Below, piece by piece: positions 10,144 through 30,800 of a stretch of DNA of 50,318 nt. Each line of letters starts with the position of its first letter. Positions within the stretch are counted from its first letter, which is position 1. Source of the stretch: a virus; the IMG/VR virus record IMGVR_UViG_3300034105_002646, positions 1-50,318 of that record; one strand, 5' to 3'. The translations under genes were made by a program, and so were the position numbers. Under the pieces are notes generated by a model. The model did no database searches. It saw nothing but the letters and a program-made list of their open reading frames with translations, and had not been told where the DNA came from.

Positions 10144-11037
10144 ATGTGTAATTTAACTAAACTAAATAAATTTATAACAAAAGCAAAAAAAATACATGGT
10201 GATAAATATGATTATTCATTATGTGAATATATTAATTCAAACGTAAAAGTAAAGATAGTATGTAATAAACATGGAGTTTTTGAACAATTGATGGTAAAAC
10301 ATATAAATAGAAAACAAGGTTGTTCATTATGTAATGGTGGTGTAAAATTAACCACTAATGAATTTATAACAAGAGCAAAAAAAATACATGGTGATAAATA
10401 TGATTATTCATTATGTGAATACATTAACTCAAAAATAAAAGTAAAAATAATATGTGATAAACATGGGGTTTTTGAACAAATTGCTAGTAGTCATACTGAC
10501 CAAAAAACTGGTTGTCCAATTTGCTCAAAAAAACATAATTATAATAATAGTGAATTTATTGAAAAAGCAATAATCATTCATAATAATATATATGATTATT
10601 CTGATATAGAATATAAAAATAATTACACAAAAATAAAAATAAAATGTAATAAACATGGGGTTTTCGAACAAACACCAACAAACCATTTAAATGGTAAAGG
10701 ATGTCCTATTTGTAAAGATTCAAAAGGTGAGCGTGAAATAAGACAATATTTAAACCAAAATAATATTAATTTTATATACCAACACACATTTAGTGATTGT
10801 AGAAATATAAAATTATTACCATTTGATTTTTATTTACCTAATTATAATATATGTATAGAATTTAATGGCGAACAACATTATAAACCAATTAAATGGTTTG
10901 GTGGTGAGAAAACATTAGAAGGTATTAAAAAAAGAGATAAAATAAAAATGGAATATTGTCAAAATAATAATATCCCATTAATAATAATTAACAATGATAA
11001 TTATGATTTACAAAAAAAATTATCATTGTTTATTTAA
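10144..11037 (+). CDS. free-standing homing endonuclease with three zinc-ribbon modules and a Vsr/PD-(D/E)XK-like nuclease (297 aa)
   Basis: Encoded opposite to its neighbours. It has three tandem modules (about residues 8-64, 72-128, 135-190), each running F-I-x-K-A...IH-x-(D/N)-x-YDYS...K-I-x-C-x-KHGVFEQ...H...GC-x2-C, so each has paired Cys/His groups likely to bind zinc and DNA. The C-terminal domain has PFDFYLPNYNICIEFNGEQH and later RDKIKMEYC, the D...E-x-N-G-E-Q-H...D-x2-K layout of Vsr-like phage endonucleases. The modules resemble repeats I associate with DUF723-type phage proteins (family name from memory). The stop overlaps the 3' end of the convergent baseplate gene by 15 nt. Inferred role: cuts an empty target allele at the end of the neighbouring gene so that this segment is copied in. 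Confidence 0.85.
   Translation: MCNLTKLNKFITKAKKIHGDKYDYSLCEYINSNVKVKIVCNKHGVFEQLMVKHINRKQGCSLCNGGVKLTTNEFITRAKKIHGDKYDYSLCEYINSKIKVKIICDKHGVFEQIASSHTDQKTGCPICSKKHNYNNSEFIEKAIIIHNNIYDYSDIEYKNNYTKIKIKCNKHGVFEQTPTNHLNGKGCPICKDSKGEREIRQYLNQNNINFIYQHTFSDCRNIKLLPFDFYLPNYNICIEFNGEQHYKPIKWFGGEKTLEGIKKRDKIKMEYCQNNNIPLIIINNDNYDLQKKLSLFI
10171..10482 (+). repeat. 192-bp-spaced duplicated zinc-ribbon modules
   Basis: The first module (from 10171) and second (from 10363) of the endonuclease match over about 117 bp with nine mismatches by eye (about 92%). The third module is much more diverged. This indicates a recent in-frame duplication that lengthened the DNA-binding array. Confidence 0.8.
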
Positions 11038-21350: not shown

Positions 21351-22973
21351 ATGAAAAAGAAAACAACACAAGAATTTATTAAAGAAGCAAATATCATACA
21401 TAATAATAAATATGATTATTCATTATCAACATATAAAACAAATAACACTAAAGTTAAAATAATATGTCCTATACATGGTGTTTTTGAACAAACACCCGTA
21501 AAACATATATTAGCAAAACATTGTTGCCCTAAATGTTCTAATATAAAATTACATAATATTCAAAGAAAGGATAAAAATACATTTATTTTGGAATCAAAAA
21601 ATATACATAAAGATAAATATGATTATTCATTGGTTGAATATATTAATAATAGGACAAAAATAAAAATAATTTGTCCTATTCATGGTGTTTTTGAGCAAAC
21701 ACCAATTAATCATTTAAAAGGTAAAGGTTGTAAATATTGTGGTGGTACATCTAAATTAGACACTAATTTTTTTATTTATAATGCTAATAAAATACATAAT
21801 AATTTTTACGATTATTCATTAGTTGATTATTTAGATTCTAGAACTAAAATAAAAATAATTTGTCCTATTCATGGTGTTTTTGAGCAAACACCTAATAATC
21901 ATTTATCAAAAGAACAAGGTTGTTTCAATTGTTTAAATAAAATACATGATAATATTACTTTTTCAAATTATTGTTCATTATTACATAACAATAAATATGA
22001 TTATTCATTAGTTAATTACACATTAATCACTAATAAAGTTAAAATTATTTGTCCAATTCATGGAGCATATGAACAAAGAGCCGATTCACATAAAAATGGT
22101 AATGGTTGTAATAAATGTTCTAATAATGGTGTTTCTAAAGAAGAAAAAGAATTAAATAATTGGTTGAATAGTTTAGGTATTATAACTGAAACTAATGATA
22201 AAAATACATTAAATGGTTTAGAATTAGATATTTATATTCCATCACATAATTTAGCTATTGAATACAATGGTTTATATTGGCATTCTGAAGAATTTATAGA
22301 TAAAAATTATCATATTAATAAAACTGAATTATGTGAAAAACAAAATATTCAACTTATTCATATATTTGAAGATGAATGGTTATTTAAAAAAGATATTGTT
22401 AAATCAAGATTAATGAATATACTTGGATTAACAACGAATAAAATATATGGAAGAAAAACTGAAATACGAGAAGTAAGTTCTAAAAAATCAAAAGAATTTT
22501 TAGATGCTAACCATATTCAAGGTAATGTTAACTCTAAAATAAAATTAGGTTTATACTATAAAGATGAATTAGTTAGTATTATGACTATAGGTAAAAGACC
22601 TATGATAAATAATTATGAATATGAACTTCTTAGGTTTTGTAATAAACTAAATACTAATGTAATTGGTGGGGCTGATAAATTACTTAAAAATTTTATTAAA
22701 ACATATGAACCAAAACAAATCATAAGCTATGCCGATAGAAGATGGTCACAGGGTAATTTATATGAAAAATTAGGTTTTAATTTTAAAAATAATTCTATAA
22801 TTTCTTTTTCATATATTATTAATAAAAAAAGAGTAAATAGATTGAATTTACAAAAACATATATTAGTTAAGCAAGGTTTTGATTCTAATAAAACTGCTAA
22901 ACAAATAATGTTGGATAGGAAAATATATAGAATATATGATTGCGGAAGTAAAAGCTATGAACTAATTTTTTAA
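21351..22973 (+). CDS. free-standing homing endonuclease, four zinc-ribbon modules plus Hef/Vsr-like nuclease (540 aa)
   Basis: Plus strand, between gp6 and gp25. Four modules (about residues 7-61, 75-127, 137-193, 200-255) share F-I/S...IH-x-N/D-K-YDYSL...K-(V/I)-K-I-ICPIHGVFEQ...H...C-x2-C with Cys/His pairs likely to bind zinc. The C-terminal half starts with GVSKEEKELNNWL, then LDIYIPSHNLAIEYNGLYWH (D...E-x-N-G...H) and later RFCNKLNTNVIGGADKLLKN and SYADRRWSQGNLYEKLGF. That tail resembles phage 'Hef'-type homing endonucleases (comparison from memory). The stop overlaps the convergent gp25 stop by 4 nt. Unlike the 10144 gene, no displaced copy of the neighbour's 3' end is visible. An alternative ATG at 21334 is closed after six codons. 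Confidence 0.85.
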   Translation: MKKKTTQEFIKEANIIHNNKYDYSLSTYKTNNTKVKIICPIHGVFEQTPVKHILAKHCCPKCSNIKLHNIQRKDKNTFILESKNIHKDKYDYSLVEYINNRTKIKIICPIHGVFEQTPINHLKGKGCKYCGGTSKLDTNFFIYNANKIHNNFYDYSLVDYLDSRTKIKIICPIHGVFEQTPNNHLSKEQGCFNCLNKIHDNITFSNYCSLLHNNKYDYSLVNYTLITNKVKIICPIHGAYEQRADSHKNGNGCNKCSNNGVSKEEKELNNWLNSLGIITETNDKNTLNGLELDIYIPSHNLAIEYNGLYWHSEEFIDKNYHINKTELCEKQNIQLIHIFEDEWLFKKDIVKSRLMNILGLTTNKIYGRKTEIREVSSKKSKEFLDANHIQGNVNSKIKLGLYYKDELVSIMTIGKRPMINNYEYELLRFCNKLNTNVIGGADKLLKNFIKTYEPKQIISYADRRWSQGNLYEKLGFNFKNNSIISFSYIINKKRVNRLNLQKHILVKQGFDSNKTAKQIMLDRKIYRIYDCGSKSYELIF

Positions 22974-23441: not shown

Positions 23442-24056
23442 TTATGATGAACACCCGAAGCATTCAAATTGACTGTCTTGCGGTTTTTCTGGTTTATTCT
23501 TATCCATATCAATCGCCAAGTGTTTAGCTTTATTATCTACAGACTCACTTCTTAGATAATATTGGCCTGTTTTAAGACCTAATTTCCAAGATAAGGTATG
23601 TGAAGTTGTTAACTTACCAACTGTTGGTGTAGAGAAGAAAATATTAAGACTTTGTGATTGGTCAATAAATGGTCCTCTATCAGCAGACATTTCAATAAGG
23701 GCTTTTTGTGATATCTCCCAAACTGTTTTATATCTTTCTTTAATATCTTCACTTATTGTTGGGATATTTTGAACACTACCATCATTCTTCATTAATTCTT
23801 GAAGTGTTTCTCTATTCCAAATACCAGCTTCTTCTAATTCTCTAACCAAGTGTTTATTTACCATTGCAAACTCACCACCTGTTACTCTACGAACATATAA
23901 GTTGGATGTAAATGGTTCAAAAGCTTCGTTTGACCCAATTACACGAGCAGAATTATGACTAACACAACCATTTTCCATTATATAATTATGAACATTTGGT
24001 ACTTCAATATCCCAAGTTGGTTTGACACCATTTTTAGTTATACTTTTTATTTTCAT
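23442..24056 (-). CDS. nrdA: split NrdA, C-terminal half: 35-aa C-intein plus 169-aa C-extein (204 aa)
   Basis: Residues 1-35 are a C-intein: block F PTWDIEVPNVHNYIMENG and block G CVSHN, ending in His34-Asn35. Residue 36 (Ser) is the +1 nucleophile. Residues 36-204 continue class Ia RNR large subunit exactly where the N-half stops: SARVIGSNEAFEPFTSN, RRVTGGEF, and the C-terminal redox cysteines in ECFGCSS. Joined to the N-half by trans-splicing, the product is 600 + 169 = 769 aa, the expected NrdA size (T4 NrdA is about 754). The ATG lies inside the last codons of the upstream endonuclease gene (23-nt overlap), so translation probably depends on reinitiation. A simple pseudogene is excluded by the intact splice residues. 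Confidence 0.93.
   Translation of the reverse strand: MKIKSITKNGVKPTWDIEVPNVHNYIMENGCVSHNSARVIGSNEAFEPFTSNLYVRRVTGGEFAMVNKHLVRELEEAGIWNRETLQELMKNDGSVQNIPTISEDIKERYKTVWEISQKALIEMSADRGPFIDQSQSLNIFFSTPTVGKLTTSHTLSWKLGLKTGQYYLRSESVDNKAKHLAIDMDKNKPEKPQDSQFECFGCSS
23952..24056 (-). other. C-intein (IntC) of split NrdA intein
   Basis: 35 residues starting at the ATG. Asp16 and His23 of block F, penultimate His34, terminal Asn35 and Ser +1 are all present. Length and layout match known naturally split C-inteins such as cyanobacterial DnaE IntC (36 aa). Confidence 0.92.
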
Positions 24057-25113
24057 TTAATTTTTGTTTTATTATTTTATTTATTTTTTCTTTATTTATA
24101 ACTTCACTATCTGAAGACCATAACTCTAAGTAATCAAAACCATTTTTTAATGCTAGTTGTTTTTTATTTTTATCTTTAGTGATTGATTCTTCTAAATTTA
24201 ACCTAAAGTATTTTCCCCACGCATCTTCTTTTAATTTACTTACACCATATTTTTGGATATTTGGGTGGAATTTTTCACCATGATATTCTATAATTATATT
24301 TAATGATAGAATAGTTAAATCATATGAAAAAGTTAAATTATTTTCTAAATCATGTAGTCTATATTCGTATGAGCCACTTACACCTAAAAAAATATCATTT
24401 CGTTCAACACCGTTTTTACGTAAATGTTTATATAATGGAATAAAATATTTTAAAGATTCTTTAGATGCTGTAAAAAATGAAACATCTCTTTTCTTGAGTT
24501 CTTCTATTTGCAATATTTTTGCTAATTTTAAATCACCATTAGTTTTCTTTAAAAAGAAATTAATACTCATACAATCTTTTTTTAAAGAAAACTTTTGATA
24601 CAAGTCAATCGCTTTTTTTCTATCACCATTTGTTTTTTTTAAGAAATAATTCATTGACGAACCATCTTTATTTTTATTTATTTCATTTAATTTAGTTTTA
24701 GCAATATTAATATCACCATATTTTTTAATTAATTTTTCTAAACTAACTACAACACTTTTTTTACGCTCAATCAACATTTCATTAGCAATATTAATATCAC
24801 CATTAGACTTTTTTAACGCCCAATCTTTACTGTTTGAATCTTTCGTTTTTAAATATTCAAACCATTTATTTGTACCATCAACTTCACCATATTTAAAGAC
24901 AAATGTTTCTAAAGTATGTTTACTTTTATCACAAAATTCTTTATATTTTATTAAACCATCAACTTCACCATGATTAAAAATAAAACTTTCTAAAGTTCTA
25001 CCACATTTTAATTTGTGGATTTTTACTTTATCAATCGCTTCATTTTCAGAAAAACCTTTACCTAACCAATATTCAATTTTAAAAGGTGTTGTTTTACTAG
25101 ATATTTTTTCCAT
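24034..25113 (-). CDS. free-standing homing endonuclease inside split nrdA (359 aa)
   Basis: Lies between the two halves of nrdA on the same strand. Residues ~12-35 carry EYWLGKGFSENEAIDKV, a motif common at the start of phage homing endonucleases. Residues ~40-210 are six tandem units of about 28 aa, built on S-x2-x-F-(L/I)-K-K-x-(N)GD-x2-x-A, probably a DNA-binding array. Residues ~245-340 form the nuclease core: YDLTILSLNIIIEYHGEKFH (D265, E276, H278), then KDKNKKQLALKNGFDYLELW, the Vsr/PD-(D/E)XK-like layout described for endonucleases associated with fractured split-intein genes (EDxHD group). The C-terminus overlaps the NrdA C-half start by 23 nt. Inferred role: homing into intein-less or unfractured nrdA. 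Confidence 0.85.
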   Translation of the reverse strand: MEKISSKTTPFKIEYWLGKGFSENEAIDKVKIHKLKCGRTLESFIFNHGEVDGLIKYKEFCDKSKHTLETFVFKYGEVDGTNKWFEYLKTKDSNSKDWALKKSNGDINIANEMLIERKKSVVVSLEKLIKKYGDINIAKTKLNEINKNKDGSSMNYFLKKTNGDRKKAIDLYQKFSLKKDCMSINFFLKKTNGDLKLAKILQIEELKKRDVSFFTASKESLKYFIPLYKHLRKNGVERNDIFLGVSGSYEYRLHDLENNLTFSYDLTILSLNIIIEYHGEKFHPNIQKYGVSKLKEDAWGKYFRLNLEESITKDKNKKQLALKNGFDYLELWSSDSEVINKEKINKIIKQKLNENKKYN

Positions 25114-25125
25114 AATTTTCTTTAT

Positions 25126-25134
25126 TATAAATAT
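25126..25134 (-). promoter_or_regulatory. ATATTTATA promoter-like motif before the nrdA-embedded endonuclease
   Basis: TATAAATAT on the plus strand, 12 nt before the endonuclease ATG and within the 44-nt gap after the NrdA N-half stop. It could drive separate expression of the endonuclease and, by coupling, the NrdA C-half. Inferred. Confidence 0.35.
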
Positions 25135-25157
25135 CTAGTAAAACTTTAAACGACCAA

Positions 25158-27302
25158 CTAATCTTCAAAAATATTTAAAATATCGTCCGTGGTTAATAAA
25201 TCTTCAACTTTAACCCAAATATTAAAATCATCACGTTTAACTTTAAATTTATGATTTCCTGTTGCTTCAAATATTGAACCATCTTCCATTTCTATTTTAT
25301 ACACTTCAGAGTGACCATTATACCTAATTTGCGTTACTGTTTCCCACCCTGTTTCTGTTTTAACATCAATGGGTTCTAATTCAATCCAACTAGGTATATT
25401 TGATTTTTCATACCATTCATAATCAACATTGTTATCAACTAAAATATTTTTAAACGATTTTATTCCATTATCTGTTATAATATCAGTATTAATAACTTGG
25501 CAACTTGCTGTTGGTGGACATGTCGTTACCAAAGAATTTCTAACACCATATTTTTTAATATCTTCACGTAATTGTTTCCAATCATACATTCCAGATAAAA
25601 TTTCTTCTTTAATATCCCACATTTCCCATTGAAAAATACCTTGTGATATAGGTGAACCTTCAAAACCACTATAGGTTAATCCACTTTCTTTAGCTAACCT
25701 ACATGATTCAGTTAAAGCATTAAAATAAATCGTTTCAAATATATTTTTATTTATTTGTCTTGCTTCTGGTGATGTAAAAGGCAATTTAAGCAACGCAAAT
25801 ACATCAGCTAAACCTTGGATACCAATTCCTAAAGCTCTTTGTTCTAAACCACCTTTACGGCCTTCCTCAGTTGAATATTCATTAATTTCTAAAGCAATAT
25901 TAAGTGATTTGGTAATTGAACGAGCAACACGACCTAATTCATTATAATTATAAACACCATCATTTACAAATTTTTGTACTGGAATACTAGTAAGAGTACA
26001 AATAGCTGTTGTATTAGCATTAGTTGTCTCCATAATCTCGCTGCACAAGTTACTAGAATGGATAACACCCATATTCTTTTGGTTAGATTTGATGTTTGCT
26101 GAATCTTTAAAACACATATAAGGCATTCCACTTTCAATTTGTGCTTCAAGTATCTTAAGCCATAAATCATGTGCTTTAATTTTGGTACCAATACCTAATT
26201 CTACAGCCTTATTATATTCTTCTTCATACTCAGCACCATAAATTTCATAAAATGGTTTTAAACCAGCCATTTTGATATCATGTGGACAAAATAAATACCA
26301 ATCAGTGTTTCCTTCTACTGCTCTCATAAAATTATCTGGAATCCAAAGTGCAGAAAATAAATCTCTTGCTCTAAGTGTATCATCACCAGTTTTCTTTCTC
26401 ATATCCAATACATCAAAGATATCTTTATGCCATGGTTCAATATAAATAGCACATGAACCAGGTCTTTTACCTCTTTGATTCCAAAATCTAAGAGCTTCAT
26501 TTATTACTTTAAGGTATTTGAATATACCACCAGCTTTACCATCAGAATTACCAACGTTGGTTTCTCTAGAACGAATATTTGAAACAGCTAAACCAATACC
26601 TTCAGCTTTAGAAGATGAAATAGAAATTCTACCTAACATGTTTAATAACCCTTCAGTTGAATCATCTGGTACTATTGATAAATTACATGATGCAATTTGA
26701 CCAATCTTGGTTCCAATATTTATTTTTATTGGTGTTGCTGGAGATTCTTTTTGGTTACTTAAATCATTATATTTCTCTCTGAAATCATCAGCATTGTTTG
26801 TTACCATAAGAGCAACTCTAATGTATAATTGTTGTGGTCTTTCAACCAACTGACCATCTTTAGTTTTTAAGAGATAAATATCTTTAAGTGAACACCAACC
26901 AAAATAATCAAAATGATAATCTCTTTTATAATCAATTACAGAATCAATAAGTTCAATATTTTCTTTTACTTTATTATAATAGAAATCATTTAACAAACCT
27001 GCATTATATTGTTTTTTGGTTGCTTTCATGAAATTATCTTCAGTTTCTTTATGTAACTTACTAATAGAAATATTAGAAGCTAATATTGAATAATCTGGAT
27101 GATTCATTGATAATGATTCAGCAACAATTGAAATTAAATCATCAACTTCATTTGTTGTCATGTTATCAGCAATTCCTTGTGTAACTTTTAAGAACAATTC
27201 ATCAGGGTTAACTTTTAACCCATCTGATTGTTTTTTTATTCTTAATAAGATTTTATTTGGATTAAAATCTATTTTCTGTCCGTTTCTTTTTATTACTTGC
27301 AT
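25158..27302 (-). CDS. nrdA: split NrdA, N-terminal half: 600-aa N-extein plus 114-aa N-intein (714 aa)
   Basis: Class Ia ribonucleotide reductase large subunit, which reduces NDPs to dNDPs with NrdB. Residues 1-90 form an ATP-cone (VIKRNGQKIDFNPNKILLRI). The catalytic core shows QIASCNLSIV (active-site Cys), SSNLCSEIMETTNA (N-x-C-x-E radical-chemistry loop) and ICTLTSIP. The extein stops at TCPPTAS (residue 600), the conserved loop where intact NrdA would continue into the SARVIG-type strand. Residues 601-714 are an N-intein: Cys1 in CQVINTDIITDNG, and block B with T81-x-x-H84 (ATGNH). The frame closes right after the N-intein. nrdB lies 7 nt upstream. The enzyme lacks its essential C-terminus until trans-spliced. 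Confidence 0.94.
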   Translation of the reverse strand: MQVIKRNGQKIDFNPNKILLRIKKQSDGLKVNPDELFLKVTQGIADNMTTNEVDDLISIVAESLSMNHPDYSILASNISISKLHKETEDNFMKATKKQYNAGLLNDFYYNKVKENIELIDSVIDYKRDYHFDYFGWCSLKDIYLLKTKDGQLVERPQQLYIRVALMVTNNADDFREKYNDLSNQKESPATPIKINIGTKIGQIASCNLSIVPDDSTEGLLNMLGRISISSSKAEGIGLAVSNIRSRETNVGNSDGKAGGIFKYLKVINEALRFWNQRGKRPGSCAIYIEPWHKDIFDVLDMRKKTGDDTLRARDLFSALWIPDNFMRAVEGNTDWYLFCPHDIKMAGLKPFYEIYGAEYEEEYNKAVELGIGTKIKAHDLWLKILEAQIESGMPYMCFKDSANIKSNQKNMGVIHSSNLCSEIMETTNANTTAICTLTSIPVQKFVNDGVYNYNELGRVARSITKSLNIALEINEYSTEEGRKGGLEQRALGIGIQGLADVFALLKLPFTSPEARQINKNIFETIYFNALTESCRLAKESGLTYSGFEGSPISQGIFQWEMWDIKEEILSGMYDWKQLREDIKKYGVRNSLVTTCPPTASCQVINTDIITDNGIKSFKNILVDNNVDYEWYEKSNIPSWIELEPIDVKTETGWETVTQIRYNGHSEVYKIEMEDGSIFEATGNHKFKVKRDDFNIWVKVEDLLTTDDILNIFED
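25161..25502 (-). other. N-intein (IntN) of split NrdA intein
   Basis: 114 residues, from Cys1 directly after PPTAS to the stop. Block A (CQVINTDIITDNG), block B (FEATGNHKFKV with the TxxH motif) and the final LLTTDDILNIF are typical of natural N-inteins. No endonuclease domain is present in the intein itself; the endonuclease is a separate gene. Confidence 0.92.
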
Positions 27303-27309
27303 AGTTTAT

Positions 27310-28263
27310 TTATATTTCTTCATCAAATGAAATAGCACCAGATAAATCAGCCGCTTTATACTCTGAGGACCTTCCTTCAAAGAAATTTTGTTTTGTTTTA
27401 AGTGTGATTTGATTCATAAACTCAAAAGGATTTTTTGAATTAAATTCTTTTTCACATCCTAATTGACCCAATAACCCATCAACAACAAATTCTAAATATT
27501 GTTTCATTAAATCAGCATTCATTCCAATCAAAGAAACTGGTAAAGACTCTGTAATGAATTCTTTTTCTATTTCTAATGCCGATAATAAGATTTCTCTAAT
27601 TCTATCTTTAGTTGGTTTATTTACAATATGATTATTCAATAAATGTATTGCAAAATCAGCATGTAATGCTTCATCTCTAGAAATAAATGTATTTGAATCA
27701 CAAAGACCTGGCATAAGACCTCTAGATTTCAAATAGAAAATACTACAGAATGAACCTGAAAAGAAAATACCCTCTACAGCTACAAACGCAATTAATCTTT
27801 CTACAAATGAGTCTGATTCAATCCATTTAAGTGCCCATTCAGCTTTTTTCTTAACTGGTGGCATATATTCGATAGCTTTGAAACATTCATTTCTTTCTTT
27901 AGTATCTTTGATGTAAGTATCAATAAGAAGTGAATACATATGACTATGAATATTTTCCATCATAATTTGAAATCCATAAAAGAACTTTGCTTCTGGGTAT
28001 TGTACTTCATTTAGAAAGTTTATTGCTAGGTTTTCATTTACGATACCATCTGATGCCGCAAAAAATGCTAATACATTTTTAATAAAAAATCTTTCATTAT
28101 CATTAAGTTTTTTATTCCAATGGTCTAAATCTTTGGATAAATCAACTTCTTTTACTGTCCACATTGCTTCTTGTTCTATTTCATAATAATCCCACAAATC
28201 TTGGTGTGTGATTGGGAAAATAACAAAACGCTCTGAATTTTCTTTTAATATTGGTTCTATCAT
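27310..28263 (-). CDS. nrdB: ribonucleotide reductase small subunit NrdB (317 aa)
   Basis: Class Ia R2 subunit supplying the tyrosyl radical to NrdA. All ligands are visible with canonical spacing: D72, E103, H106, radical Tyr110 ([10 protein letters not shown]), then E164 (EGIFFSG), E198 and H201 (RDEALH). The spacings 31-3-4 and 34-3 match eukaryote-type R2. At 317 aa it is somewhat shorter than T4 NrdB. The C-terminus ([10 protein letters not shown]) is acidic and hydrophobic, as needed for docking to NrdA. It lies 17 nt after the helicase gene and 7 nt before nrdA, one operon. No intron or intein seen. Confidence 0.95.
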
Positions 28264-28280
28264 TATTTTTATTTTAATTA

Positions 28281-30800
28281 TTAATTATTTGGTTTTTCAA
28301 ATAGGTCACTATTTAATAGACTATTTTTAGTTTGTATAGCACCTATTACTGTATTTACTCTAGTTTGCTCTTTAATCTCTACATTTTTTTTATATTCACT
28401 ACGACTAGAACCATGTTTATTCTCACCCATTTCTATTTGAATTCTAGCGTTATCAAATATAATATCTTCAAATACCTTCCCAGATTGACCAAAACGAGAT
28501 TTAAGAATAGCCATAGTTGCAGTACTTTTTTCTTTTTGGTCCAGTGTTTTAGCAATAGATACTACAAAGTGTCCAATTTGTGCTTTTTTAATGGAACCAC
28601 CCATTTGGTCAGCTTCAACTACATCAGCTTTAATAGAGCTTCTATTACCTTGAACAGCTGTCCAACCAGCAATATCTAATTCGGATAACATAGTTTCAAA
28701 TTGTCTCATTACACTACCCTCACCAGCATTCACATCATCAAATCTTCTTGAAGGTTCAACACAATCAATATAATCTAATACTACTATATCAGGTCTGAAA
28801 CCAGTAGCAATTAATTTTCTAATATATTGTCTAATTATTGGTATTGTTGTCCCATCACTAGAGAATTTTTTAAGTCTTAATTCCCCACCATTACTCTTTT
28901 CCATCATATTTTTAATCATCTCTTTTATCTCTTCTTTATGAATTGATAAACTATTAAGGTCATATTCTGACCAGCATGATAAGTGTTTTCTTTGAATTAC
29001 CTTAGGGTTATCCTCAAAAAATATTTGTAAAACTTTATTACCATCAGACATAGCAGTATTAGCTATTTTAGTCATCATTGTTGTATTATGTGTAACAATA
29101 AAATCATCGGTAATAAATAAATGTTCATCATTATCAACCATTATACACGTAGCTTCTTCATCGTGTGAATATTCTATTGATTTTATAAATTTATTGTTAT
29201 CATATTTAACTCTATTAATTACTCTATCATTTTTTCTAGTTAATTTGAATGGTATTATATTATTTTTTTCTGGAAAAGATATAGTTAATTTATAAGCTTT
29301 TTTTCCAATTTTTTTAACACCTTTATAGGTATAGGTTGGTAATTTACTAGATAATTTACAAAACCCACCCAATGATAAAACTAACCATCTAACATTTTCA
29401 ATTAATTCTTTTGATGTACTGACATATTCAATCCCACCATTTTTTCTAACATTACCATCGGTATCTAATAACCCCCTAAGTAGTTCTACCCTATTTTCTA
29501 TTGAATTGAATAAATAATCTCTAGGTATAAATTTAGTATCAGATTTTTTATCATATAAACCCAAAGATTTTAATTTATCAGTAATCCCATAAATACAAAC
29601 ATCAAATAAACACTCTTGAACTAAAACATCACCTTTATCAATATCTCTACATCTTTCTTTAATTGAAACGTTTACTGAATTAGTTCTACTAACTTCATCA
29701 GCTATTTCAATATCTTTAGTTGTAAATCTAGATGATTTCATATAACCATCACCTAACATAACACCTAAAACATATGGATTTATTAGTAATTCTTTTTCAT
29801 TAAATTCAACTGGTTCCACTATTGGTATCTTAAAATTTAACGATTTTTTGGTTCCAAAGGTTAGTTTATTAATTAAATCTGATGTTTTAATTACTTTAAA
29901 TGAATTATCTGGTTCTAATTTAATTCTTTTTCCATCTTTCCACGATGAACGATTTCGTTGGTTGATACTATTAACTGACCACAAATGTTCTTCATCACAA
30001 AAAGTAAAAGTATCATCATTAAAACTAATCTTAAATATTGGTCTATTACCTTGTGGGTAAACACCAATAACATTAGTTTCTTTACCGTTTCTACCAAATA
30101 CTTTATCATTAACTTTTACATCACCCATTAGTTTGTAACCTTCAGGTGTGTAAATTTTATTTGAATTTGGTAACGCTTTACCTACTCCGAATGGTGCTAG
30201 AATTATTGCTAATTCAGTTTTTGATAAACCACCATCCATTATTTCATCTAATCCTTCGATACCTGTACGTATTGGTTTTCTAAAATCGTCAGCCAAAACT
30301 GAATCTATATCATTAAATACACTCATACCATCATCTTTACTATCACCGTGTTCCAGTGCTTTTCTTAATTTACTTTCACATTCTTCATAATTATCAATAT
30401 CACCTTTGCTTATGATTTTATTAATTTCAGCAAGAGCTTTCATAAGCTCATGTTGTTTACAAAATTTCATTGCAGTTTCTTGTACCCAAAGAGTGTCGTT
30501 TAAATCAGCTTCTTTTATTTTTCTGATTTGTGTTAAAGCATAACGTCTTTGAGTGTCATCTTTAACTTCTTCGAGTAATCTAAATTCCAAACTATTAATA
30601 TCTGGGATTATATCATCTTTTGCTTTAGCGTTTTTAATACCACCAACAACAATTCTTAAGTATTCATCTTCGAAATAATTTGGATTAACAATATCTATTA
30701 TAGCATTACCGAATTTTCTATCGGTAAGTATTTGTGCTATTAATCTAAGTTGATAATCCGCACCTAAATACCCTAAATTACTTCTGTCTATTTTTGCCAT
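28281..30800 (-). CDS. 41: gp41/DnaB-like replicative helicase interrupted by an intein in Walker A (839 aa)
   Basis: The precursor is 839 aa. Residues 1-208 and 573-839 form a 475-aa helicase (the T4 gp41 length). The N-domain is helical; [18 protein letters not shown] leads to the P-loop APFGVGK, whose Thr-Thr follows only after the intein; Walker B is [12 protein letters not shown]. The hexamer unwinds DNA 5'-3' at the fork with primase. Residues 209-572 are the intein. Because it splits GVGK from TTMM, the precursor cannot bind ATP until spliced. nrdB follows 17 nt downstream. The leader carries AGAAAGGA, one of the few Shine-Dalgarno-like sites here, and an ATATTTATA motif 30 nt upstream. 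Confidence 0.94.
29085..30176 (-). other. class 3 intein with LAGLIDADG homing endonuclease (364 aa)
   Basis: Starts at Ala209 (after GVGK) and ends at Asn572 (VTHN) before Thr +1. The usual nucleophile at position 1 is Ala. The class 3 signature is complete: Trp at intein residue 66 (DEEHLW, block B), Cys at 344 (EATCIMV, block F position 4) and Thr at 362 (VTHN, block G). An endonuclease domain shows both LAGLIDADG helices: VLGVMLGDG (about 136-144) and [10 protein letters not shown] (about 232-241). Class 3 inteins are known in phage DnaB-type helicases; the block F Cys begins splicing through a branched intermediate. Confidence 0.9.

What the first reader, a model, noticed from the sequence alone, without database searches (positions are those of the whole stretch)
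23442..27302. Fractured nrdA: split intein with a free-standing homing endonuclease gene between its halves
Seen: the NrdA N-half ends PPTAS followed by a 114-aa N-intein and stop; a 359-aa nuclease gene follows; then an ORF begins with a 35-aa C-intein ending HN and continues with Ser-ARVIG of NrdA. All catalytic intein residues (Cys1, TxxH, block F D and H, HN, Ser+1) are present and the exteins add to a normal 769-aa NrdA. Known: such 'fractured gene' layouts (split intein plus EDxHD/Vsr-like endonuclease) were described mostly from environmental sequence. Here the whole operon and phage context are visible: the phage's dNTP synthesis depends on trans-splicing.
Basis: partly seen in the sequence, partly recalled or inferred. 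Interest (0 to 1): 0.92.

Follow-up and report, generated by a model that had tools for sequence, protein, structure and literature searches.

The report
Phage enzyme gene split by intein
In this uncultured phage the gene for a key DNA-building-block enzyme (NrdA) is broken in two by a split intein with a selfish DNA-cutting-enzyme gene in the gap, so the phage very probably stitches the two protein halves together after translation; the arrangement is a known kind, but its relatives show every stage of how such breaks arise, spread and outlive the selfish gene.

Summary
The layout recurs in independent metagenomes, so it is not an assembly error. Splicing residues are conserved and the intein halves are under purifying selection, also in relatives that lost the nuclease gene; trans-splicing is therefore the best reading. 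The nuclease is Vsr-like/EDxHD. This is a new member of the known 'fractured gene' kind (Dassa 2009), not a new kind. The added value is comparative. The closest relative (97% NrdA identity) has an empty site. Other relatives carry an intact, gutted or missing nuclease but stay split. Some have NrdA in three pieces by two split inteins. The Campylobacter pair CC_R7/WX1 shows a contiguous intein and the same intein broken by a nuclease gene in ~92% identical DNA.

The parts
25503..27302 (-). NrdA N-extein, 600 aa (ATP cone, all-alpha and most of the barrel domain; holds ASC206, NLC420 and the PPTAS insertion site)
   Evidence: Pfam PF03477, PF00317, PF02867
25161..25502 (-). N-intein, 114 aa, Cys1 ... 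TGNH (block B), followed by TAG stop
   Evidence: TIGR01445 above cut-off
25114..25157 (-). leader between the N-intein stop and the nuclease start; holds ATATTTATAATAA
25126..25134 (-). promoter-like ATATTTATA; intergenic copies enriched 9 vs 1.4 expected, 8 of 9 on the - strand
24034..25113 (-). free-standing homing endonuclease gene, 359 aa: N-terminal array of helical repeats (about residues 10-210) and C-terminal Vsr-like nuclease
24109..24465 (-). Vsr-like/EDxHD nuclease domain (residues 217-335); candidate catalytic E250, D265, E276, H283, D314
   Evidence: TIGR00632 vsr, residues 248-334, E=0.0022
24034..24056 (-). 23-bp overlap of the nuclease gene end and the C-part start
23952..24056 (-). 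C-intein, 35 aa, own ATG, WDI (block F) ... SHN (block G)
   Evidence: TIGR01443 above cut-off
23445..23951 (-). NrdA C-extein, 169 aa, Ser+1; holds the radical-transfer tyrosines (QYYLR) and the C-terminal redox CFGC
27310..28263 (-). nrdB, class Ia small subunit, directly upstream in the same gene cluster
28281..30800 (-). DnaB-like helicase with a contiguous LAGLIDADG intein (about residues 209-572) that is absent in L010 and others

Best explanation
A mobile fractured-gene element sits in a phage class Ia ribonucleotide reductase gene. The two NrdA polypeptides are made separately. Their intein halves find each other, form one Hint domain, cut themselves out and join PPTAS to SARVIG, giving intact 769-aa NrdA. 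The gene in the gap encodes a Vsr-like (EDxHD) homing endonuclease, proposed to cut intein-less nrdA alleles of co-infecting phages so that repair copies the whole block (N-intein, nuclease gene, C-intein) into them. The nuclease gene arrives with its own promoter-like element, which may also drive the C-part. Shown by sequence: anatomy, conservation, sporadic distribution, horizontal spread, loss of the nuclease without re-fusion. Inferred: trans-splicing activity, cleavage specificity, promoter function.
For: Exact block anatomy and NCBIfam intein_Nterm and intein_Cterm above cut-off. Each half lacks what the other has: the active-site cysteines are in the N part, the YY and C-terminal CxxC in the C part. 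dN/dS is 0.09-0.31 in the N-intein and 0.03-0.23 in the C-intein, also between phages without a working nuclease gene (L061-L066: 0.09 and 0.045). Intein-bearing NrdAs are scattered over the extein tree, and a single clade of the close set is rejected (p-AU 0.0026). The window groups with empty-site L010/L014 (SH-aLRT 99; L010 97% identical). C-intein dS to L062 is 0.18 against 1.54 for the adjoining extein (only 35 codons). The nuclease resembles Vsr (NCBIfam vsr E=0.0022; Foldseek 1cw0 probability 0.99; BFVD 'putative VSR endonuclease' of phage Aes123, E=4.8e-9). Longer related contigs (94-368 kb) carry one NrdA only.
Against: No biochemical evidence. No co-conversion tract could be shown: near the site the window does not match intein donors better than elsewhere. 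The AlphaFold model is of moderate confidence (pTM 0.42, 7 sequences) and its PDB matches have E-values of 0.01 or worse. The host and the rest of the genome are unknown.
Confidence: 0.9

Rival explanations
1. Genes-in-pieces without splicing: the two NrdA fragments assemble non-covalently into a working enzyme, as in Aeromonas phage Aeh1, and the intein halves are inert remnants.
For: A precedent for a nuclease-split, unspliced, working NrdA exists (Aeh1, cited in PMC3653736).
Against: Cys1, the block B His, block F WD, HN and Ser+1 are all kept in a family diverged to 47% identity, with dN/dS well below 1 even where the nuclease is lost; inert remnants would decay.
Confidence: 0.05
2. Broken nrdA (pseudogene); the phage uses the host enzyme or another RNR.
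For: The record is incomplete, and the literature called the interrupted Campylobacter phage CPt10 nrdA a pseudogene (PMC3653736).
Against: Extein dN/dS is about 0.1, as in comparisons between the window and the intein-less L010; all motifs intact; the CPt10 break itself turns out to carry a complete split intein.
Confidence: 0.03
3. The nuclease is not specific for this site: it is a passenger that landed in an already split intein and no longer homes. (This can be true together with trans-splicing.)
For: Nucleases of different families occupy the same split site in other phages (HNH in Klebsiella and Campylobacter phages), and several split inteins have none.
Against: Nuclease and intein seem to travel together (W-L002 dS 0.64 and 0.68 against 0.94 in the extein and 1.42 in nrdB); dN/dS in the nuclease 0.14-0.21, so it is or recently was selected.
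Confidence: 0.12

Closest known systems
'Fractured genes' of Dassa et al. 2009 (NAR 37:2560, doi 10.1093/nar/gkp095; not held here, cited through PMC3653736 and PMC7090010)
   Same: A DNA-metabolism gene, mainly of phages, broken in two by a split intein with a free-standing, often Vsr-like, nuclease gene in between (abstract recalled from memory); PMC3653736 says 7 nrdA and 2 nrdJ cases interrupted by inteins were reported from ocean metagenomes.
   Different: Here the close relatives with empty site, full, gutted and absent nuclease are all seen, as are doubly split NrdA relatives. Whether one of the seven published nrdA cases is at this very site could not be checked.
Split inteins gp41-1, gp41-8, NrdJ-1, IMPDH-1 and NrdA-2
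   Same: Class 1 split inteins cut at the usual endonuclease position, N about 90-115 aa, C about 35-40 aa.
   Different: Different sequence; weak profile match to gp41-1 structures (6qaz, E=0.007).
I-Bth0305I / Vsr-like EDxHD homing endonucleases
   Same: Vsr-like catalytic domain with E, D, E/H and D residues invariant in relatives.
   Different: The DNA-binding part is an array of helical repeats; structural match to I-Bth0305I itself (3r3p) is weak (probability 0.23).
Campylobacter Firehammervirus nrdA (CP220, CPt10, CC_R7, WX1, CP21)
   Same: Related intein at an equivalent NrdA position (about 36-38% identity over the matched part), contiguous in CP220, CPt10 and CC_R7, split with a nuclease gene in WX1 and CP21.
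   Different: The nuclease is of the HNH kind, not Vsr-like; the phages are unrelated to the window's group.
Aeromonas phage Aeh1 nrdA-a/nrdA-b with mobE
   Same: NrdA in two pieces with a homing endonuclease gene between.
   Different: No intein reported; functional nevertheless (PMC3653736).

Membership tests
Fractured gene (Dassa 2009) | Conserved enzyme gene broken in two ORFs by the two halves of a split intein | tested here: met
Fractured gene (Dassa 2009) | Free-standing endonuclease gene between the halves | tested here: met
Fractured gene (Dassa 2009) | Host gene acts in DNA synthesis or repair, phage context | tested here: met
   nrdA next to nrdB, dnaB, gp25 and baseplate wedge genes
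Class 1 split intein | Cys1, block B T/S-x-x-H, block F Asp, C-terminal His-Asn, nucleophile at +1 | tested here: met
Class 1 split intein | Splices in trans | not testable with these tools
   indirect only: purifying selection
Vsr-like/EDxHD homing endonuclease | Vsr-like fold with E, D, (E)xH, D active site | tested here: met
   invariant E250, D265, E276, H283 and D314; vsr model E=0.0022 (below its curated cut-off); Foldseek 1cw0 probability 0.99
Vsr-like/EDxHD homing endonuclease | Cuts the intein-less allele and homes | not testable with these tools
   distribution consistent:
Group I intron-borne endonuclease | Self-splicing RNA around the nuclease gene | tested here: not met
   only 44 nt between the N-intein stop and the nuclease start and a 23-bp overlap at the other end; no room for a group I intron

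The most novel reading that the evidence does not exclude
Relatives of this phage (L061, L062, L066, L071, L106, L008; cultured: Campylobacter phage WX1) make NrdA from three separate polypeptides with two different split inteins, one placed exactly at the active-site radical cysteine (NLC). The enzyme would then be dead until two orthogonal trans-splicing reactions are complete, and the promoter-like element inside the fracture could let the phage time its RNR by when the C-part is made.
Probability: 0.12. Interest if true: 0.8.

Novelty: new member of a known kind. Interest (0 to 1): 0.55.

Why it matters
Split inteins are major protein-engineering tools, yet how they arise in nature has rested mostly on metagenome fragments. 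This family gives close comparisons for the whole life cycle: empty site, full element, dead nuclease, split intein without nuclease. In every intein-bearing metagenomic relative checked, the intein stayed split also where the nuclease was lost, which suggests that breaking is hard to reverse. The cultured Campylobacter pair CC_R7/WX1 (contiguous against broken intein in about 92% identical DNA) makes the origin of a split intein testable at the bench. The family also offers new split intein pairs that differ from each other within one enzyme.

Tried and rejected
Co-conversion tract around the site: divergence from L010 is higher in the 300 bp before the insertion, but differences do not favour intein-bearing relatives; inconclusive. 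Apparent 100% C-extein identity of L049: a short chance match, discarded. Homing site as an unusually conserved DNA stretch: not so (rank 292 of 755 windows). Genome-collection search for the N-intein: no relative. PDB sequence search with the nuclease profile: only a chance hit. T4 late promoter TATAAATA in sense direction: the motif is on the opposite strand in the leader; the enriched sense motif is ATATTTATA. Intron explanation of the insertion at NrdA residue 420 in relatives: rejected, it is a second split intein. Dassa 2009 full text: not held, so exact comparison with its nrdA cases could not be made. The extein tree is a quick search with SH-aLRT only; L107 was mislabelled as empty in the first tree and corrected, where the distant rows L008, L102, L103, L108 and L109 were left out.
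Full report
Check of the observation. On the - strand the window reads nrdB - nrdA-N - nuclease - nrdA-C. NrdA-N is 600 aa of NrdA ending PPTAS plus a 114-aa N-intein and a stop; the nuclease ORF has 359 aa; NrdA-C is a 35-aa C-intein ending HN plus 169 aa beginning SARVIG. The extein sum is 769 aa. NCBIfam's intein_Nterm and intein_Cterm models pass their curated cut-offs. The nuclease gene starts 44 bp after the N-intein's stop codon and its own stop lies 23 bp inside the C-part gene. The window is the whole of an IMG/VR record of 50,318 bases. The same layout occurs in contigs of several other metagenomes at 65-83% protein identity (L002-L006), so an assembly or sequencing error is excluded for practical purposes.

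Why trans-splicing. Cys1, the block B His, the block F WD motif, the terminal HN and the +1 Ser are kept across relatives down to 47% N-intein identity. Pairwise dN/dS is 0.09-0.31 for the N-intein and 0.03-0.23 for the C-intein, including pairs in which the nuclease gene is dead or gone (L061-L066: 0.09 and 0.045). The N part holds the active-site cysteines (ASC206, NLC420), the C part the two radical-transfer tyrosines and the C-terminal CxxC (roles from established knowledge of E. coli NrdA). Neither half can be a full enzyme. Related contigs of 94-368 kb hold a single NrdA, so it is probably the phage's only one; this is not proof of dependence.

The nuclease. All seven aligned relatives keep E250, D265, E276 and H283, and the six complete ones keep D314. 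The NCBIfam Vsr model matches residues 248-334 (E=0.0022, below its curated cut-off). AlphaFold (mean pLDDT 75, pTM 0.42) gives an array of helical repeats followed by a nuclease domain; Foldseek finds E. coli Vsr (1cw0, probability 0.99, E=0.09) and, weakly, I-Bth0305I (3r3p, probability 0.23). Among viral models the best is a putative VSR endonuclease of Aeromonas phage Aes123 (E=4.8e-9). The Aes123 PolB1 intein is itself a known natural split intein (PMC11923092).

A promoter-like element. ATATTTATA occurs 15 times in the window, 9 of them in the 4.7% that is intergenic (1.4 expected; 0 of 500 shuffles reach 9), 8 of the 9 on the - strand, the strand of most genes. One copy lies in the 44-bp leader of the nuclease gene; the longer form ATATTTATAATAA is shared with the leaders of dnaB and a baseplate wedge gene. 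L002 has the same leader almost unchanged. The HEN-less relatives L062 and L066 lack it. It may drive the nuclease and the C-part; this is inference.

Life cycle in relatives. Of the loci fetched with NrdA, about 60 have an empty site with the two exteins joined directly. The window's nearest relative, L010 (97% over 769 aa), is empty, and the two fall together with empty L014 at SH-aLRT 99. Intein-bearing rows are scattered; at least six changes are forced by well-supported branches, and a single clade of the close set is rejected (p-AU 0.0026). The window's C-intein differs from L062's by dS 0.18 while the adjoining extein differs by 1.54 (35 codons only), and N-intein and nuclease dS to L002 (0.68, 0.64) lie below those of the extein (0.94) and nrdB (1.42). 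The block therefore moves between phages. In L061 (the same contig as L096; L097 alike) the nuclease has lost its ATG and residues 105-326, the catalytic domain included, in frame. In L062/L063/L089-L092, L066-L068/L098-L101, L071 and L103 no nuclease remains, with only tens of bases between the halves, yet the intein is still split. L064, nearly identical to L061 in its exteins (99%), is empty at this site.

Two split inteins in one enzyme. L061, L062, L066, L071, L106 and L008 have a second split intein at NrdA residue 420, directly at the NLC radical cysteine, with a nuclease gene that looks GIY-YIG-like in L061, L071, L106 and L008 and none in L062 and L066 (the GIY-YIG reading is by eye). 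NrdA is then encoded as three polypeptides. Within L061, L062 and L066 the N-inteins at the two sites show no significant pairwise similarity (E about 1 or worse). L042, L061, L066 and L071 also have a split intein in the dnaB helicase, with a related Vsr-like nuclease in L042 and L061.

Cultured phages. tblastn of the N-intein in phage records led to Klebsiella phages phiKp_21 and KP13-7, whose nrdA is broken at the equivalent site with an HNH-like nuclease gene between, and to Campylobacter phages. CP220 and CC_R7 have a contiguous mini-intein (146 aa in CP220) at the equivalent site; WX1 has the same intein split by a 373-aa HNH-like nuclease gene; CP21 has it split with a frameshifted nuclease. 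WX1 and CC_R7 are 91.8% and 92.1% identical on the two sides; 25 bp of the contiguous intein's linker correspond to 1,114 bp in WX1. Since CP220, CPt10 and CC_R7 share a similar linker, insertion into a contiguous intein is the simpler direction. The nrdA of CPt10, called a pseudogene in PMC3653736, is read here as a fractured gene: its first break carries a complete split intein at NLC with two ORFs in the gap, and its second site a contiguous intein.

Verdict. The finding is real and its mechanism very likely as stated. It is a new member of a known kind. The comparative series, not the single locus, is what deserves attention. My literature search is limited to open-licence papers, and the founding paper was not available, so I do not claim that the three-piece NrdA or the CC_R7/WX1 pair is unreported.

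Noticed in passing
window 28281..30800 (-): The DnaB-like helicase carries a contiguous LAGLIDADG intein after GVGK that starts with Ala and has HLW in block B, a Cys in block F (ATCIMVD) and Thr at +1, which suggests a class 3 intein. It is absent in the near relative L010.
   Followed up: partly
window 21351..22973 (+): 540-aa protein with repeated treble-clef-like motifs and a Vsr/MTES_1575-like domain, opposite to the gene cluster and next to gp25; homologues sit at the same place in several relatives (L036, L037, L040, L066, L072). It resembles the Hef-like protein next to nrdA in Campylobacter phage PC14.
   Followed up: partly
window 10144..11037 (+): A further free-standing endonuclease (phrog_559/681), also opposite to its neighbours; the region before it is rich in ATATTTATA.
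   Followed up: no
window, 9 intergenic places such as 21257, 25126, 30831, 47348: ATATTTATA enriched in intergenic DNA on the gene strand: a candidate phage promoter motif.
   Followed up: partly
L042:3002-4800, L061:3002-4748, L066:4050-4700, L071:4100-4698: dnaB split at GNR|SS by a split intein, with a related Vsr-like nuclease in L042 and L061 and none in L066 and L071.
   Followed up: partly
L118 (Campylobacter phage CPt10) 171-4238: nrdA annotated as disrupted and called a pseudogene in the literature has a complete split intein at NLC with two ORFs in the gap; probably a working fractured gene.
   Followed up: partly
L069, L105-L107: The intein sits one codon further upstream (MPVA|S) than in the window group (PPTAS|S), so related inteins are shifted by one residue.
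   Followed up: no
L110:7001-8393, L111:5289-5836: More distant split relatives of this intein in other genes (a RecA/UvsX-like and a NrdJ-like context, by eye).
   Followed up: no
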